Below, piece by piece: positions 2,576 to 10,500 of a DNA stretch of 10,500 bases (positions are counted from its first letter, which is position 1; each line of letters begins with the position of its first letter). Position numbers and translations under genes: made by a program. Below the pieces are notes generated by a model. The model was not told the DNA's origin. It worked only from the letters and a program-made list of their open reading frames with translations, and did not search any database. The stretch lies in assembly GCA_031254255.1 (NCBI GenBank), contig JAIRUT010000052.1, positions 1 through 10,500 on the forward strand. Direction: 5' to 3'. Origin of the DNA: Coriobacteriales bacterium (GTDB taxonomy: Bacteria > Actinomycetota > Coriobacteriia > Coriobacteriales > UBA8131).

Positions 2576-2651
2576 GGGCCGTTAGCTCAGTTGGTAGAGC
2601 AGAGGACTTTTAATCCTAAGGTCGCGGGTTCGATTCCCTCACGGCCCACCA
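2576..2651 (+). tRNA. tRNA-Lys (anticodon TTT), with two stem mismatches
   Basis: The acceptor stem GGGCCGT (2576-2582) pairs fully with ACGGCCC (2641-2647), followed by A and an encoded CCA (2649-2651). The D-arm is GCTC/GAGC. The anticodon loop CTTTTAA carries TTT at 2609-2611. Two stem positions do not pair: G2602 against A2618 (top of the anticodon stem, 27-43) and C2625 against T2639 (second pair of the T-stem, 50-64). The rest is canonical, so it is probably functional, but two mismatches are unusual. Its last 20 stem and loop bases before the final CCC recur inverted at 5146-5165. Confidence 0.93.
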
Positions 2652-3135: not shown

Positions 3136-3444
3136 ATGACTGAAAGATTGACTGGCGGAGAAACATACCTGTTCGGCGTGGATTACGAAGTAGCACACGA
3201 CAGGATAAACAACGAGATCGGCTATCACACGAATGCAGCGCGAACAGAAGGCCATGACTCGCCTGCTGGACAGCGTCATATGGCATTGGCCAAGTGCTAT
3301 GCCCAGTTGAGACGGTCAGTAAGACCTGATGATCCGGCGGGTCTGGAAATCCTTTCCATTGCCTTGGATGCGGCACAGCTAAGCCGCTATGAAAATCAGG
3401 CGATTGATTCTGACACGGAGAACCACTACGTTGCCTCAGCCTGA
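3136..3444 (+). CDS. Small protein upstream of zeta toxin, putative antitoxin
   Basis: This 102-residue protein (MTERLTGGETYLFGVDYEVA...) is not one I recognise. The start is well supported: a strong GGGAGGA (3124-3130) lies 5 nt before the ATG, downstream of a good promoter. It is soluble and probably largely helical, with no signal peptide, membrane segment or visible DNA-binding motif. In zeta/PezT systems the antitoxin is encoded immediately upstream and blocks the toxin's ATP site; position, size and gene overlap fit that role. The overlap with the next gene suggests translational coupling, with the antitoxin made first from the better ribosome site. The antitoxin role is inferred from context only. 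It does not look like PezA, which carries an N-terminal helix-turn-helix. Confidence 0.75.
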   Translation: MTERLTGGETYLFGVDYEVAHDRINNEIGYHTNAARTEGHDSPAGQRHMALAKCYAQLRRSVRPDDPAGLEILSIALDAAQLSRYENQAIDSDTENHYVASA

Positions 3445-4300
3445 ACTACAAGGCTCTGTCAATTCCCATGAACTCTCACCCGAGCAAAACCGGGTGGTCT
3501 ATGAGACAGAAATATTCCCAATCAATTACGCAGATTTACACGGAGTGCCAAATCCATCCGTACATTTCTTCGGCGGTCAGCCCGGTGCCGGAAAGAGCGT
3601 GGCAGAGGATAGGATCATCACAGAGCTGGAATCCGTAGATGGCAAAAACAGTATTGCAGAAATCAGCATAGACAATTACCGCCCACAGCATACAGCGTAT
3701 AGTCAATTATTGGCCACGGATGAAGAGAACCTTGGAGCCTACACGAACCAAGATTGCTGGCTTTGGTCAGAGCGGGCCAAGGATTATGTGCTTCAATTGA
3801 AACCGCATGTTATCCGAGAAGGCACTCTGCGAAATCCTGACCAGACACTGACCGATGTGGGTAGTTATCTTGAAAGTGGATTCAGGGCAGAACTGCATAT
3901 CGTTGCCGTCCATGAGTTTATCAGTCGTTTACGTTATCTGAGTCGCTATATTGATGAAGTTGAGTATTATGGCGGTGGTCGTTTGGTGCCACGCTCGCTG
4001 CATGACGAAGCATATCAGCAATTGCCGGAATCGGTTGCAGCAATGACTGATGCTCGAATGTTTCACAAGATTTCTATCCATAATGGTAACGGTCACATAA
4101 TCGAAGAAGTTGAACTAACTGATCTGGACGCAACACGCAAAACGTATATGGCCGTTATGTCCGAACGTGATTCAGGTAAAATGGACAAGCAGGCGCTTAT
4201 AAGAGACATTGATCAACAACTTGAACGTGCTCATCTAATCGGCCGACCAAATATTGCTGAGGAATTGCAGGTATTGCGCAATGAGGTTGTAGAAGCTTAA
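3389..4300 (+). CDS. Zeta/PezT-family toxin kinase
   Basis: Zeta toxins phosphorylate UDP-N-acetylglucosamine (and related UDP-sugars), blocking peptidoglycan synthesis. The fold is visible: Walker A GGQPGAGKS (residues 62-70), the substrate-side IDNYRPQHTAY with D95, R98 and H101, IREGTLRNPDQT (142-153) matching the zeta E-x-T-x-R region, and GGRLVPRSLHDEAY (196-209), a motif typical of the family. The 303-residue length is normal. The ATG start gives a 56-nt overlap with the upstream gene but has no clear ribosome site. TTG at 3431 (residue 15), with GGAG 10 nt upstream and only a 14-nt overlap, is a credible alternative. Its basic N-terminus (MKIRRLILTRRTTT) may be an artefact of the early start. 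All key residues appear intact. Confidence 0.9.
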   Translation: MKIRRLILTRRTTTLPQPELQGSVNSHELSPEQNRVVYETEIFPINYADLHGVPNPSVHFFGGQPGAGKSVAEDRIITELESVDGKNSIAEISIDNYRPQHTAYSQLLATDEENLGAYTNQDCWLWSERAKDYVLQLKPHVIREGTLRNPDQTLTDVGSYLESGFRAELHIVAVHEFISRLRYLSRYIDEVEYYGGGRLVPRSLHDEAYQQLPESVAAMTDARMFHKISIHNGNGHIIEEVELTDLDATRKTYMAVMSERDSGKMDKQALIRDIDQQLERAHLIGRPNIAEELQVLRNEVVEA

Positions 4301-4566: not shown

Positions 4567-5067
4567 CTACTGAAACCCTGCTCTTTCTTTGCTTGCATAC
4601 CTATGCGGTCGCCTAATGGTCGCACCAGCTTTCCTGAGCGTCTTTGTCACCGTCGACTCACAGATGCCAAGCTGCCTGCTGACCTGTTTTAATGTTAGTC
4701 CATCGGAATAAAGTTTTTTGGCTTGTTTGATTTGGTTTTCATCCATGCGATTTCTGGTGACAGTTACACCGTTGCGTTTCAAGACATTGCTGATGGTTTG
4801 CCGACTGCAACCGTATTTTTCCGCAAGTTGATTGACAGTCAATCGGTTCTGAGTGTAACCAATGATCAGGTGGTTTATTTCTTCTTTGCTGAAATAGGTC
4901 TTGTGTTGCTGGGCCGTCTTTTTTGCTACTGTTGCATTTTCCGGCAATTGGTTTTCGTATGTCTTTAGAGATGAATTAGCTGGTATTTTGCTAGATTTAT
5001 CATTCGTGCTATATTGGTTTGTGGTGAATGTCGCCTGTTTGGTATTGGCACTGTTGGCGCGAGTCAT
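4567..5067 (-). CDS. Double helix-turn-helix DNA-binding protein (resolvase-type HTH)
   Basis: From the ATG at 5065-5067 the protein has 166 residues. The first 55 or so are Asn/Thr/Ser-rich and probably disordered. Two similar HTH units follow: LTVNQLAEKYGCSRQTISNV with its recognition helix and RNGVTVTR (about residues 76-104), and LTLKQVSRQLGICESTVTKT with RKAGATIRRP (about 125-153). This resembles the C-terminal HTH of serine resolvases/invertases, but no catalytic resolvase domain is present, so it is likely a small DNA binder or a recombinase-derived regulator. A GTG at 5098-5100 would extend it by 11 residues, but that start touches the base of the long hairpin, so I prefer the ATG. 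Neither start has a clear ribosome site. The gene is AT-richer than typA, consistent with acquisition. Confidence 0.7.
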   Translation of the reverse strand: MTRANSANTKQATFTTNQYSTNDKSSKIPANSSLKTYENQLPENATVAKKTAQQHKTYFSKEEINHLIIGYTQNRLTVNQLAEKYGCSRQTISNVLKRNGVTVTRNRMDENQIKQAKKLYSDGLTLKQVSRQLGICESTVTKTLRKAGATIRRPHRYASKERAGFQ

Positions 5068-5098
5068 ATTGTTTACGTCAGCGTTACCCAGTGCCACC

Positions 5099-5142
5099 AC
5101 GATTCGGCTCTGGGAGCTTTTTAGCTCTCAGAGCCGAATCGT
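5099..5142. terminator. 20-bp hairpin, left end of the palindromic element
   Basis: Arms 5099-5118 and 5123-5142 pair throughout, with one G-T wobble, around a TTTT loop (AAAA on the other strand). It lies just upstream of the HTH gene start. There is no T-run after it, so it may act as a bidirectional transcription block or as an element boundary rather than a textbook terminator. Confidence 0.6.
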
Positions 5143-5246
5143 ATTCCGTGAGGGAATCGAACCCGAGAGGGGTCCAGCCGTTAAACGGAGGCGCCAGTGG
5201 CGCGTCCGTAGGCTGGACGGCCGAGCAAACGGAGTTTGCGAGGTCT

Positions 5247-5301
5247 GGAGAGCGTGTGCCCCGAAGGGGCGCACGATCGGCGAATCCCTATCTCTCCGCC
5301 A
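5247..5301 (+). other. tRNA-Ser-like 3' end / pseudo-tRNA fold
   Basis: GGAGAG (5247-5252) can pair with CTCTCC (5292-5297), leaving GCCA: a serine-tRNA-like discriminator G plus CCA. Between them are a long variable-arm-like hairpin (5254-5274) and a T-arm-like GATCGG...CCTATC with one C-T mismatch. CGAATCCCTATCTCTCCGCC reads like a normal tRNA-Ser 3' end, but the TTC of the T-loop is lost and no proper D-arm or anticodon arm is present. It is therefore not a functional tRNA; it could be a degraded tRNA or a tRNA-like RNA domain. Confidence 0.4.
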
Positions 5302-5339
5302 GTACTCCCCAGCTAGCCTTTGGCTAGCTGGGGAGTACT
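5301..5339. terminator. Perfect 18-bp hairpin, right end of the palindromic element
   Basis: AGTACTCCCCAGCTAGCC (5301-5318) pairs perfectly with its complement at 5322-5339 around a 3-nt TTT loop. It starts directly at the final A of the tRNA-Ser-like GCCA, the arrangement expected of a terminator placed after a tRNA gene. There is no long T-run after it. Confidence 0.6.
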
Positions 5340-5428
5340 TCAAACTCAAATTCCCGATAGGTATTCACTTGATGCATATTCTGCATGAGCAACGGGGCCT
5401 TTTCCCGATAATGTATTCCATAGGAAGA

Positions 5429-6052
5429 TTATGCAAATAGATGGCCGAGCGCTATTATCGCAACACCATCAGGGCGGATATAGCTGTACTCACCCGCAGT
5501 GACAACGACACACATTGCAAGGTTTTCTAATTTTTCTTTCGTAAGTCGGGCTTTTAGCTTTTTAAAATTGGCGATGGCTTCATCTACGGCTTTTTCTCCG
5601 CCGAGTTTTACCTCTATGGCTGACCAAACCCCATCACGTCGTTCGACTATCGCGTCAATTTCAAGATTTGTGGAGTCGCGGTAATGGAAAACCTTTGCAT
5701 TGTGTGCATCGGCGTATACTCTGATGTCGCGAACCGCCATTGACTCGAAAAGTAATCCTATTGTGTTGAGGTCATCGAGCAGAGAGGGTGCTGTTGCATA
5801 AAGAGCTGCGGTCGCAAGTGAAGGATCAACGAAATGCCATTTGGGTTTCACGCGCATACGAATACTTGAACGTAGATGGATTCCCCAGGCAGGTAATTCC
5901 TCCAAAACAAAAATCTGCGTCAATTGGTCGAGATACTTTCTTACGGAAGGCCGTGATATACCTTCATAATCTAACCCGGCCTCTTTCGCTAGAAGTTCAA
6001 TAGATGCTTCTGTCGAAACGTTTCGTGAAAGAGCTCGAATCAGTGCAGCCAT
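5429..6052 (-). pseudogene. DUF4143/COG1373 ATPase, N-terminal AAA domain missing
   Basis: The 207 residues correspond to the C-terminal half of predicted ATPases with an N-terminal AAA domain plus DUF4143 (usually about 400-430 residues). A winged-helix-like region (about 14-65, SVRKYLDQLTQIFVLEELPAW) leads into KWHFVDPSLATAAL. A PD-(D/E)XK nuclease-like part follows: E103 in LLFES, D133 in NLEIDAIVE and the pair E147/K149 in AIEVKLG. The expected C-terminus (YIRPDGVAIIALGHLF) is intact. The Walker motifs are absent. An in-frame TGA lies four codons before the ATG, and no ribosome site is seen. I therefore call it an N-terminally truncated remnant; expression as a small protein cannot be excluded. 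Confidence 0.75.
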
Positions 6053-6286: not shown

Positions 6287-6297
6287 AGCCTAACAGT

Positions 6298-6323
6298 CGC
6301 CAGTGGCGCGTCCGTAGGCTGGA
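6298..6323 (+). repeat. Second copy of the palindromic-element core (26 bp, identical)
   Basis: These 26 bases are identical to 5192-5217 and in the same orientation, including CGCCAGTGGCGCG and CCGTAGGCTGGA. The flanking pairing arm and hairpins of the first copy are absent. It sits exactly where the LPN-repeat remnant loses resemblance to its family. Confidence 0.8.
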
Positions 6324-8082: not shown

Positions 8083-10500
8083 ATGGGGCTAAAGGGGCAC
8101 CATGAGTATGCTGGGTTAACGATATCCATAGAGCAAAGATTTCTCGCGGTTCTTATGGTATTTGTTCTAGTGCTGGCTTTTTCGTCAGTCGGGCCAATCC
8201 CATTGTCGTTGGGTCAAATCCTGAACTGGAACTCTGAGGTTCACGGAGCTCAGAACACCAGCGCCCCAAGTGCCAGCGCCCAAAGCGTTGGAGTCCCAAG
8301 CAGCAGCACCCAAGCCCCAAGCAGCAGCACCCCAAGCACCAGCACCCCAAGCACCAGCACCCAAGCCCATCCCAGTTCAAGTGTTGGAGCATATGATGGT
8401 GTTGCCTGCAGCACTCTGAGCGAGGCTGTCGTGTCTGGCCTTGCTGCTCCGGTTCCTGCGAATCCAGCCAGTTACGTGAACAATCAAATACTGGTTGTCC
8501 TGCCGAGCCAGGATACGCAAGATCAAGCCGCTGCCAATTCCGATTTCGAGCAAGTCTTGCAGGCGGTAAATATGGAGTCCGTTGCTGCGTCCCAAGCTGC
8601 GGCCCAAAACACCCAAAGTAACTCAGCCTCCCCTGAAAACGCTAACGTCAACGCTTCCGCCGGTCTGGCATCAATCAACCGACTCTCTACTACTTCTAAC
8701 GGCGATACGATCGCCTTGCTCACTCTTCCTGAGAATGTTTCGGTAGAACAAGCCTTGCTGGCATCTGTGAACAGTGGCGTCGTGGTCTTTGCCCAGCCGA
8801 ACCACCTTTACCGAAGCGAGACGTCTGATGATGTGACACAGCAACAGTCAAACTTGCTGCTATCGGACTCTTTGCAGATGGAGCCCCAGTTACCGAGTCC
8901 CCAGGAACAAAACCTCCTGCAACAAAATGGGCAGACTGATTCACAACAGTCTGGCGCCAAAAAGTCCGATGATCAACAGCAGCTCGACCAGTGGCAGATA
9001 GACCAAAACCGTGCCGAGTCCAGCACAAAATCCAACTCTGAGCAGCCGGCACCAGTGAATGATCCTTATTTGGACCAACTTTGGGGGCTTAAGGCCGTCA
9101 ACGCTTTTTCGGCCTGGGAAAGGCAGATGGTAAATGGTTCCGTGACTGTTGCCGTCTTTGACACAGGGGCGCGCCTGACACACCAGGATCTGTCAAACAA
9201 TCTCTGGGTCAATGATGCCTGGGATGCCACCTATGTCAGCCAGGATCGCAATACGTATATTCAGGGACGTCCGCTCATGGATTCCATAGCAGCTGGCGCA
9301 CTGCAGAACAAGGGAGATTCGAATGGACATGGGACCGCCGTCAGCGGTGTGATTGCCGCTGTTGCCAATAACGGCATTGGCATTGCTGGCGTCTCTGGCA
9401 ATGCCAAGGTCCTGCCGGTGCGAGTCAGTACCGGTGACTCAGATTACATGAGCGATGCCGCCGTTGTCGTAGCTGTTGACTACGTTATAAGCAAGAAGGA
9501 TGAATTGAACATTCATGTGGTCAATATGAGTTATGGGTCTACTACCGAAAACACTGCCGAAGAGAATTTTATGCTCAATTCGCAAAAGAATATTGAATAT
9601 CGAAAAATTCTCGACCTGAACAATGCTGGCATTCTTGTGGTTGCCAGTGCGGGAAATGACAGTGGGGTCCAGGGTAAGGTCAACCCGGAGACCAAGCAAA
9701 ACTACAAGCACTTTCCGAGCGATTATCCAGAGGTTGTCGGTGTGACATCGGTTCAAGAGAATCGGAACAGTTTTGGGGATACAACCTATATCACAGCCTA
9801 CGATAGCAACCATAATCCGGAGGCCAGCCTCGCCGCTCCGGGAGTCGATATCAAGACCCTCTCTAACCTCAGCGACACGGCGATCTATCCCTATGACGAT
9901 CCTTCGGCTTCCTATATCGCTAACCAGGCAGAGATAGTCAACTCGCCAGGATCCGCAAAGGCGAAGACTTCTTCGGTGAGCTCCACACCAAACCAGGCCA
10001 TCGGGCGCAGCGGCAGCTCCTATGCCAGTCCGATGGTTGCCGGTATTGCGGCACTGCTCTATGCTGCCGACCCCAGTCTGACACCGGCCGCAGCGCGAGA
10101 CATTTTAGAGCAGACAGCCCTGGACATCGGGGATGCGGGCTGCGACCCATATTATGGCTTTGGCTTGGTGGATGCTGGGGCAGCGGTTGCGATGGTTCAA
10201 GCGCGGGCAGAATATGCAGCTTCTATTCATGTTGCGGCAGTCAGTCTGGATAGGGCTGCTTTGACTTTGTGCGTTGGGCATACTGACACCCTGGTGCCAA
10301 CGATCCTGCCTGCCGATGCTACGGACCAAAGTGTGGCCTGGACATCCAGCGATACCAGAATCGCCTCTGTTGACAGTTCGGGCAATGTGGCCGGCCTCGG
10401 AGTTGGCAATGCAACCATCAGCGTAGTGACCAACGATGGTGGAAAAATCGCGACTGCCGAGGTCGCGGTCAGTGCGCCAACAGTGAGCGTGGGATTCAAG
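8083..10500 (+). CDS. Secreted subtilisin-like (S8) protease with Big_2 domain (3' end outside window)
   Basis: An exported serine endopeptidase; 806 residues are visible and the stop is beyond the window. The ATG at 8083 has AGGGGG 8 nt upstream and an in-frame TAA directly before it. Domains in order: a signal-type hydrophobic segment (about 18-36, FLAVLMVFVLVLAFSS); a Ser/Thr/Pro-rich low-complexity stretch (about 57-100); an inhibitor-I9-like propeptide (about 130-243, NNQILVVLPS to VVVFAQPNHLY); a Gln/Ser-rich linker (about 245-325); and the S8 catalytic domain from about 327. The triad is complete: D360 (VFDTGA), H416 (NGHGTAVSG) and S646 (GSSYASPM), with oxyanion N525 (ASAGND). The domain closes with DAGCDPYYGFGLVDAGAAV. 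From about 713 a Big_2 Ig-like domain follows (LVPTILPADAT, VAWTSSDTRIASVDSSGNVAG), pointing to cell-surface or matrix association. A sorting signal, if any, would lie outside the window. Confidence 0.95.
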   Translation, partial: MGLKGHHEYAGLTISIEQRFLAVLMVFVLVLAFSSVGPIPLSLGQILNWNSEVHGAQNTSAPSASAQSVGVPSSSTQAPSSSTPSTSTPSTSTQAHPSSSVGAYDGVACSTLSEAVVSGLAAPVPANPASYVNNQILVVLPSQDTQDQAAANSDFEQVLQAVNMESVAASQAAAQNTQSNSASPENANVNASAGLASINRLSTTSNGDTIALLTLPENVSVEQALLASVNSGVVVFAQPNHLYRSETSDDVTQQQSNLLLSDSLQMEPQLPSPQEQNLLQQNGQTDSQQSGAKKSDDQQQLDQWQIDQNRAESSTKSNSEQPAPVNDPYLDQLWGLKAVNAFSAWERQMVNGSVTVAVFDTGARLTHQDLSNNLWVNDAWDATYVSQDRNTYIQGRPLMDSIAAGALQNKGDSNGHGTAVSGVIAAVANNGIGIAGVSGNAKVLPVRVSTGDSDYMSDAAVVVAVDYVISKKDELNIHVVNMSYGSTTENTAEENFMLNSQKNIEYRKILDLNNAGILVVASAGNDSGVQGKVNPETKQNYKHFPSDYPEVVGVTSVQENRNSFGDTTYITAYDSNHNPEASLAAPGVDIKTLSNLSDTAIYPYDDPSASYIANQAEIVNSPGSAKAKTSSVSSTPNQAIGRSGSSYASPMVAGIAALLYAADPSLTPAAARDILEQTALDIGDAGCDPYYGFGLVDAGAAVAMVQARAEYAASIHVAAVSLDRAALTLCVGHTDTLVPTILPADATDQSVAWTSSDTRIASVDSSGNVAGLGVGNATISVVTNDGGKIATAEVAVSAPTVSVGFK

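What the first reader, a model, noticed from the sequence alone, without database searches (positions are those of the whole stretch)
5099..5340. Compact structured element with tRNA-like ends facing outward, each capped by a long hairpin
In 240 bp the element combines a 20-bp hairpin (5099-5142), a minus-strand tRNA-Lys-like T-arm/acceptor end (5146-5165), at least four inner hairpins, a plus-strand tRNA-Ser-like GCCA end (5247-5301) and a perfect 18-bp hairpin (5301-5339). The layout is symmetric: on each strand a tRNA 3' end is followed directly by a hairpin. No protein-coding explanation fits. It could be a non-autonomous mobile element built on tRNA 3' ends, a tRNA-like structured RNA, or a recombination scar of two tRNA loci.
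Basis: partly seen in the sequence, partly recalled or inferred. Interest (0 to 1): 0.72.

Follow-up and report, generated by a model that had tools for sequence, protein, structure and literature searches.

The report
Hairpin units copying tRNA gene ends
The element is one copy of a family of gene-less DNA hairpin units that sit behind tRNA genes in gut bacteria and carry copies of the local tRNA's 3' end; the repeats behind two E. coli tRNA genes have the same layout, so a common laboratory bacterium can be used to learn how such units spread.

Summary
A unit reads: tRNA 5' part (a) | 21-nt tRNA 3' end (b) - short gap, often a terminator - reversed b - about 110-nt core of four hairpins - second b. 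In the window's family (Coriobacteriales) 31 of 33 genomes carry it, in the order 129 of 297; Clostridia have it too. Copies stand behind 35 tRNA anticodon types, tmRNA, and once 5S rRNA. Cores at different tRNAs of one genome are up to 97% identical, yet flanked by the local tRNA's sequence in both orientations. The window copy is a displaced chimera: Lys-type left flank, Ser-type right flank. Long core stems are almost purely Watson-Crick, unlike neighbouring terminators, so selection seems to act on DNA. In 12 carrier genomes, reverse transcriptase was found in 2 and Y1 transposase in 6. I favour spread by host DNA synthesis with template switching; that is inference. E. coli tyrT and proK repeats (RtT) share the layout but not the sequence. 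Family: firmly supported. Mechanism: open.

The parts
5099..5142 (.). Left outer hairpin (position of the gap hairpin in intact units)
   Evidence: 20-nt arms, 95% complementary; a second copy, 98% over 42 nt, on contig C150 of the same genome
5146..5159 (-). Reversed tRNA 3' half, rc(b), Lys type
   Evidence: 14 nt identical to the reverse complement of the T-arm/acceptor of the tRNA-Lys gene at 2576-2651
5160..5280 (+). Core (AACCC...GG), about 120 nt, four hairpins
   Evidence: covariance model hits R1 5150-5291 and core-only R2 5162-5280
5162..5171 (+). P1: CCC-GAGA-GGG hairpin
   Evidence: alignment A3, 98% of cells paired
5172..5218 (+). hpA: two-part stem with an asymmetric internal loop and CC-AGT-GG tip
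   Evidence: inverted repeats I3 and I8; 16 of 18 stem pairs with changes on both sides
5219..5245 (+). hpB: stem with GA/GA internal loop and short loop
   Evidence: fold; 9 of 10 pairs with changes on both sides, but only 72% of cells paired in this alignment
5252..5276 (+). hpC: last hairpin of the core
   Evidence: fold; poorly alignable between copies
5281..5301 (+). Second tRNA 3' end, b2, Ser type with CCA
   Evidence: identical 22-nt stretch at the end of tRNA-Ser-GGA of relative G049
5301..5339 (.). Right outer hairpin following CCA
   Evidence: 18-nt arms, 100% complementary
6295..6323 (+). Fragment resembling part of the core, 29 nt, 97%
   Evidence: own-genome search
2576..2651 (+). 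tRNA-Lys(TTT), source type of the left flank; no unit directly behind it
   Evidence: ARAGORN; sequence

Best explanation
Shown: the element is a displaced copy of a family of roughly 150-215-bp units, without an apparent gene, that lie behind tRNA genes (also tmRNA, one 5S rRNA). A unit reads b - gap - rc(b) - hairpin core, placed so that the tRNA stays intact (a|b) and a second b follows the core; b is the local tRNA's 3' end from about T-loop position 56 to its gene-encoded end. Similar cores occur at different tRNAs of one genome, each with the local tRNA's end on both sides, inverted and direct. Inferred: the core works as DNA. When single-stranded its hairpins stall host DNA synthesis; the stalled 3' end folds back or switches strand on the near-palindromic T-arm, copies the local end in reverse, jumps onto a core, and returns to the tRNA end, copying it again. 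Re-copying gives tandem units; stopping near a hairpin foot gives the common partial last unit. Recombination between copies then gives solo remnants and chimeras such as the window copy.
For: Family and layout. Target copying at new tRNAs: same-genome cores mean 0.78 identity (25 pairs) against 0.61 for same-tRNA pairs of different genomes (42) and 0.61 for the rest (1339); in G005 the cores behind eight tRNAs are 0.80-0.97 identical and a ninth (Ala) 0.72-0.78, with the local tRNA end as second b, exact in 7 of 9. DNA-level stems: 3 G.T per 1466 Watson-Crick pairs in cores, 19 per 510 in the neighbouring gaps, Fisher 6e-9. Template is gene DNA or precursor, not mature tRNA: 6 of 6 CCA-less tRNA genes found have a second b without CCA. 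No standing need for a reverse transcriptase (found in 2 of 12 carrier genomes) or Y1 transposase (6 of 12). Repeats behind the second b end in rc(b) or in the first 16 nt of the core in 25 of 60 cases. Presence/absence with exact borders in Collinsella-type genomes and at E. coli proK. A 5S rRNA copy suggests that a T-arm is not essential.
Against: No step of template switching was observed. Tyrosine and serine recombinases were not searched for or excluded, and the sharp left border (T55/C56) fits one. The second b is far better conserved than the duplicated gap (5 mismatches seen, 83 expected in 25 loci), which template switching does not predict unless units turn over often. Part of the within-genome similarity of cores could be gene conversion. 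The tRNA-flanking stem leans towards G.T over A.C (20 to 9, p 0.06), and a free RNA fold gives 5.5% G.U sense against 3.7% antisense, so some RNA role remains possible. E. coli RttR is annotated as an sRNA.
Confidence: 0.42

Rival explanations
1. Site-specific recombination: a host or element-borne tyrosine (or serine) recombinase excises the unit [b-gap-rc(b)-core] as a small circle, perhaps in folded single-stranded form as integron cassettes do, and inserts it at the T-loop of the matching tRNA.
For: Exact presence/absence of one 187-bp unit between a and b with an 18-nt tRNA end as direct repeat (Collinsella-type haplotypes E and EF); the unit carries its own terminator; the second b stays intact; tandem arrays.
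Against: It does not by itself explain how similar cores come to carry a new tRNA's sequence on both flanks, nor the 5S rRNA copy, nor truncated last units. No gene is apparent in the units.
Confidence: 0.28
2. Expressed structured RNA: the unit is an RNA gene or tRNA-tail regulator, as RttR of E. coli is annotated, kept for function and moved passively.
For: Strong covariation (26 of 31 pairs with double changes, score 0.451 against shuffled 0.171); the second b keeps the full tRNA end; RttR annotated as ncRNA in E. coli.
Against: Near absence of G.T in long stems; a terminator often stands between tRNA and core; presence/absence between close relatives; cores at the same tRNA of different genomes are no more alike than other pairs.
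Confidence: 0.15
3. Retroelement: the core RNA is reverse transcribed at a nicked tRNA gene (target-primed), with tRNA 3' ends as template or primer.
For: rc(b) looks like a tRNA primer-binding site (recalled comparison); some repeats end within the gap.
Against: RVT_1 found in 2 of 12 carrier genomes, none in single-contig G105 (14 matches at E up to 0.01) or G116 (10); no CCA added where the gene lacks it; long stems not RNA-like.
Confidence: 0.06
4. REP/BIME-like palindromes moved by a Y1 (RAYT-type) transposase, or host-useful gyrase or termination sites.
For: DNA-level palindromes; a published REP survey lists rttR as containing a REP (table row seen in a passage of PMC12306157).
Against: Y1_Tnp found in only 6 of 12 carrier genomes, not in single-contig G105, G261, G102 and G165; REPs are not known (recalled) to copy their target.
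Confidence: 0.09

Closest known systems
E. coli tyrT/tyrV repeats, RttR/RtT RNA (Rfam RF00391), and the proK copy
   Same: Seen directly: tRNA 3' end (19 nt) - gap - reversed end (exact 10 nt in each of 3 tyrT units) - hairpin core - exact second end, in tandem; at proK one full unit plus a partial unit in MG1655 and four other strains, partial unit only in two strains; 1 to 14 tyrT-type places per matching genome.
   Different: Core sequence not related above chance (best score 15.5, shuffled maximum 15.0); RF00391 finds E. coli but none of 9 element loci; border about 2 nt further 3'; known in print (recalled) as a tyrT peculiarity and an sRNA; the reversed end is short at proK (6 nt by eye).
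tRNA-integrating genomic islands and ICEs
   Same: The tRNA stays intact and a second copy of its 3' end stands at the far side.
   Different: No apparent gene, about 0.2 kb, an inverted copy of the end as well, and similar cores at many tRNA types.
Integron gene cassettes / attC sites (recalled)
   Same: Small tandem units with folded-DNA features and structure kept over sequence.
   Different: No integrase tested, several hairpins instead of one, target is an RNA gene end.
REP/BIME elements with RAYT (recalled)
   Same: Intergenic DNA palindromes, multi-copy.
   Different: Fixed place behind stable RNA genes, target copying, Y1 gene not always present.

Membership tests
E. coli tyrT-type (RtT) repeats | Repeat of the tRNA gene's 3' end after each unit | tested here: met
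   56 of 69 R1 matches with an upstream tRNA have a second b within 3 mismatches, 13 do not; among 105 distinct copies selected by layout, 0 mismatches in 68 and at most 1 in 84
E. coli tyrT-type (RtT) repeats | Reversed tRNA end before a hairpin core | tested here: met
   for the family, for E. coli tyrT; short at proK
E. coli tyrT-type (RtT) repeats | Match to Rfam RF00391 | tested here: not met
   RtT hits only L325 (E. coli) among 10 sources; none in the window
E. coli tyrT-type (RtT) repeats | Expressed sRNA | not testable with these tools
   no RNA-seq available
tRNA-integrating island/ICE | Encodes an integrase | tested here: not met
   collected cores are 82-127 nt (the collection allowed 75-140); larger relatives with genes were not searched for
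tRNA-integrating island/ICE | Direct repeat of the tRNA 3' end at both ends | tested here: met
REP/REPIN with RAYT | Y1 transposase in the genome | tested here: not met
   PF01797 in 6 of 12 carrier genomes
Retroelement / SINE | Reverse transcriptase available | tested here: not met
   PF00078 in 2 of 12 carrier genomes
Integron cassette | Mobilised by IntI at attC | not tested
   no integrase search was made
Structured non-coding RNA | Covarying helices | tested here: met
Structured non-coding RNA | G.U pairs tolerated as in RNA helices | tested here: not met
   with gap hairpins as control; searches are less clear

The most novel reading that the evidence does not exclude
A cross-phylum class of selfish DNA without genes or an enzyme of its own: hairpin cores that use the near-palindromic T-arm (or the end of another stable RNA gene) as a landing site and are propagated by host DNA synthesis through serial template switching, writing the local RNA gene's end into themselves in both orientations each time. 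The E. coli tyrT and proK repeats would be the laboratory representatives.
Probability: 0.33. Interest if true: 0.92.

Novelty: new variant of a known kind. Interest (0 to 1): 0.82.

Why it matters
tRNA gene ends are known landing sites for islands and phages with integrases. Here units about 190 bp long, without an apparent gene, occupy that place behind 35 tRNA anticodon types, in Coriobacteriales and Clostridia, and carry the local tRNA sequence on both flanks. I know of no described element that copies its target in both orientations. The layout also fits the tyrT repeats of E. coli, unexplained as far as I know, and a proK copy that is unannotated in MG1655, so a curiosity becomes one case of a class and can be tested in E. 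coli K-12. The units lie at several contig ends and in chimeric arrangements, and they leave partial tRNA ends that annotation can misread.

Tried and rejected
Rfam families: none at gathering score for the element, only chance-level matches at E up to 5. A tRNA-like RNA folding as a cloverleaf: the 'tRNA-Ser' part is only the last 21 nt. Priming by mature CCA-tailed tRNA: contradicted by CCA-less genes. Reverse transcriptase and Y1 transposase as standing requirements. Phage or plasmid origin of the window core: no match; 4 IMG/VR pattern hits showed no tRNA and no b copy. An empty palindrome rc(b).b without a core, by one pattern: none in 343 loci. Snap-back at the terminator as the sole origin of rc(b): rejected by eye, since the sequence between terminator and rc(b) is not the reverse of the CCA trailer. 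Sequence homology between E. coli and element cores: none above chance. ORFs that overlap the element were not searched as proteins; compensating changes and frequent length changes in the core speak against coding. Literature: searches found no description of this family; passages of PMC8040213, PMC12306157, PMC4606813 and PMC9897764 were read, the other hits as search listings only. Only open-licence papers are searchable, so print in subscription journals cannot be excluded. Recount: no collected second b was the end of a separate, real tRNA gene (0 of 126 copies in L001-L177, 0 of 203 up to L324); on these slightly smaller sets the tests give 3 G.T per 1400 against 18 per 490 (Fisher 2e-8), 5 seen against 74 expected in 22 loci, and 23 of 56.

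Full report
Observation. Between them lies a core of four hairpins (5160-5280).

It is a family. A DNA search of 60 genomes (own included) found matches in 19. The copies share one plan. Writing a for the tRNA up to T-loop position 55 and b for the last 21 nt (C56 to CCA), a locus reads: a|b - gap - rc(b)|core|b. A covariance model R1 from 21 copies finds it in 31 of 33 genomes of the window's family, 129 of 297 of the order, 58 of 107 genera, and 10 of 346 sampled over the phylum, of which 8 are in the same order, own genome included (the last two searches used stricter filters). Of the two genomes outside the order, both show the layout behind tRNAs, and one (G494) has a clearly different core. 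A core-only model R2 without tRNA-derived letters gives nearly the same result, 30 of 33. Of 126 pattern matches in all 117 stretches it returned, 103 lie within 700 nt behind a tRNA or tmRNA gene, 67 of them with a second b of at most 3 mismatches; 23 do not, 11 of which have less than 700 nt upstream held (one search shows 86 of them in detail, some plainly random). Contig names and lengths identify relatives G021, G028, G030 and G015 as Coriobacteriales or Coriobacteriia MAGs; that their sample codes are termite guts is my recollection. I take genus g35 to be Collinsella because named Collinsella contigs carry the same copies.

Place. Of 78 R1 matches in 65 loci, 69 have a tRNA gene upstream on the same strand (one of them 1.1 kb away, several as later units of arrays). 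Of the 9 others, 8 start within 400 nt of the end of the stretch held; only the window copy has long upstream sequence without one. In 13 of the 69 no second b within 3 mismatches was found. A layout-based collection gave 134 copies, 105 distinct, behind 35 tRNA anticodon types. Three Collinsella-type loci (L127, L135, L137) follow tmRNA by sequence, and so does L330; Rfam confirms tmRNA in the two I tested, L127 and L135. Locus L344 follows a 5S rRNA gene with the same plan: end, reversed end, core, 10-nt second end. In a further sample of 21 cores, about half chosen because only R2 had listed them, 13 have a tRNA within 260 nt upstream. The others are the 5S case, two near tRNAs on the other strand (L350, L352), orphans or decayed copies, one at a contig end, and other hairpin elements. 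That sample is deliberately biased towards exceptions.

Target copying. The second b equals the first in 68 of 105 distinct layout-selected copies, at most 1 mismatch in 84. The reversed b matches the local tRNA at its variable positions; it is often 8 nt long and up to 21, and in a minority it is poor. Cores of one genome at different tRNAs average 0.78 identity (25 pairs), whereas cores behind the same tRNA in different genomes average 0.61 (42 pairs), the same as the other pairs (1339, 0.61) (pairs between two loci of the order-wide set were left out of these means, among them the closest pair, two tRNA-Ala loci of G105 at 0.96). In G005 the cores behind Thr, Val, Gln, Glu, Cys, Leu, Met and Lys tRNAs are 0.80-0.97 identical, the one behind Ala 0.72-0.78; the second b equals the local tRNA end in 7 of 9 (Glu 3, Leu 1 mismatches). 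Gaps are locus-specific there by eye, so between tRNAs the core moves and the flanks are made from the target. Among Collinsella-type species, by contrast, orthologous copies look alike and paralogous ones differ (by eye), so vertical persistence also occurs. Part of the within-genome similarity could be gene conversion.

Presence and absence. At a tRNA-Gly(GCC) locus searched in 30 Collinsella-type genomes, 22 were printed: no full unit but a partial tail (E: 7 genomes), E plus exactly one unit (EF: 3), a truncated unit only (8), a full plus a truncated unit (1), no trace (3); 8 were not examined. In EF the unit is 187 bp and the direct repeat is the last 18 nt of the tRNA. Direction, gain or loss, cannot be told.

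DNA or RNA. Helices covary strongly: 26 of 31 pairs change on both sides, score 0.451 against 0.171 shuffled and at most 0.122 when slid. But the long core stems contain 3 G.T and 0 A.C mismatches per 1466 Watson-Crick pairs, whereas the hairpins of the gaps beside them, treated identically, have 19 G.T and 2 A.C per 510 (Fisher 6e-9). The gap hairpins show the G.T excess expected of RNA and so serve as positive control. Against this: one pair beside the hpA internal loop is often G.U, a free RNA fold gives 5.5% G.U on the sense and 3.7% on the antisense strand (tRNAs 8.5%), and the flanking stem has 20 G.T to 9 A.C (p 0.06). I conclude that the long stems are mainly kept as DNA palindromes; a role of the flanking stem in RNA is not excluded.

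What the copying template is. In 6 of 6 loci whose tRNA gene lacks an encoded CCA, the second b lacks it too (a seventh listed case was an ordinary neighbouring tRNA). So the copy comes from DNA or precursor, not from mature tRNA. In 25 loci whose gap is recognisably duplicated but has diverged by at least 10% (mean 19.5%), the second b shows 5 mismatches in 17 positions where 83 would be expected. The collection required at most 3 mismatches, which inflates this, but hardly enough to explain it. The second b is therefore constrained or often renewed; frequent loss of the unit, which turns the second b into the tRNA's own end, would do this. That is inference.

Machinery. Reverse transcriptase (PF00078) was found in 2 of 12 carrier genomes and Y1 transposase (PF01797) in 6 of 12. 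Single-contig G105 (14 element matches at E up to 0.01), G261, G102 and G165 have neither, nor does G005; G116 (10 matches) has Y1 only; G271 has a reverse transcriptase only. Recombinases were not searched. Near-identical repeats behind the second b end inside the gap (21 of 60), in rc(b) (5), within the first 16 nt of the core before the first long hairpin (20), at core 17-30 (5), later (7), or cover a whole unit (2); 3 more run into contig ends. The cluster before the long hairpin suggests polymerase stops. With the flank copying and the 5S case it leads me to replication-linked template switching, at 0.42. A recombinase working on folded DNA is the main rival (0.28).

E. coli. The tyrT/tyrV repeats have the same plan: 19-nt tRNA-Tyr end, gap, exact 10-nt reversed end, hairpin core, exact second end, three units. 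RF00391 (RtT) matches these and none of nine element loci, and the cores are not alike above chance, so this is the same layout, not shown to be the same lineage. An RtT annotation behind tRNA-Pro in another strain led to proK: MG1655, DH1 and three other strains carry a full and a partial unit with the Pro end, while E7-1N7 and EC958 have the partial unit only. The MG1655 record shows no unit annotated there. Of 5,426 E. coli genomes, 4,695 match the tyrT unit, 1 to 14 places each, and 2,661 have a place covering at least 80% of the proK core; the tyrT-type rows listed there cover at most 69%, so most of the 2,661 are probably proK copies.

The window copy. Its left flank is Lys-type and its right flank Ser-type, and no tRNA stands next to it; the tRNA-Lys gene is 2.4 kb away. 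I read it as a recombinant or displaced copy. The genome is 51% complete, so its Ser source may be missing.

Verdict. Family, anatomy and target copying: firmly supported. DNA-level selection: well supported for the long stems. Mechanism: inferred. Absence from print is claimed only for the searches named.

Noticed in passing
window 3389-4300 (+), with 3136-3444 (+) before it: Zeta-toxin family protein (PF06414, E 3e-33) preceded by a small ORF without Pfam match, possibly its antitoxin; lies between tRNA-Lys and the element.
   Followed up: no
window 4567-5100 (-): 177-aa protein with helix-turn-helix domains, one of resolvase type (PF13384, PF02796), whose ORF begins at the left outer hairpin; what looks like a degenerate relative and a second copy of that hairpin lie on contig C150 (L002, by eye).
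   Followed up: partly
window 5429-6052 (-): DUF4143 protein (PF13635, E 3e-28) right of the element.
   Followed up: no
window 8083-10500 (+): Long ORF that looks like a secreted subtilisin-type protease with a low-complexity Ser/Thr/Pro stretch (from its translation; not searched).
   Followed up: no
L163, core of the tRNA-Asn copy (G015); L216 and L232 in Clostridia: Cores carrying a further insert of roughly 100-300 nt inside or beside hpA; in L163 the insert itself looks hairpin-rich, in L232 it bears T-arm-like ends (by eye).
   Followed up: no
L158 (tRNA-Met), L174 (tRNA-Pro), L344, L346, L347, L352: A second, related hairpin module (CCAGTGG-type hairpin followed by a GCGAGCTTGCG- or GCGCTTGCGC-type hairpin) nested in some units or standing alone, once inside a longer imperfect inverted repeat (L346; exact pieces of 13 and 9 nt, longer by eye).
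   Followed up: partly
L336 (G494): Two tRNAs (Pro, Arg) of a distant genome of the same phylum followed by the same layout with a different core and a CCAGTGG-type hairpin in the gap.
   Followed up: no
NC_000913.3 around 3708616 (L365): The proK unit of E. coli MG1655 is unannotated, while other strains carry it as 'RtT sRNA, processed from tyrT transcript', probably an annotation carry-over.
   Followed up: partly
L350: A copy whose core lies in the opposite orientation behind a tRNA-Ser gene, so insertion orientation may be reversible.
   Followed up: no
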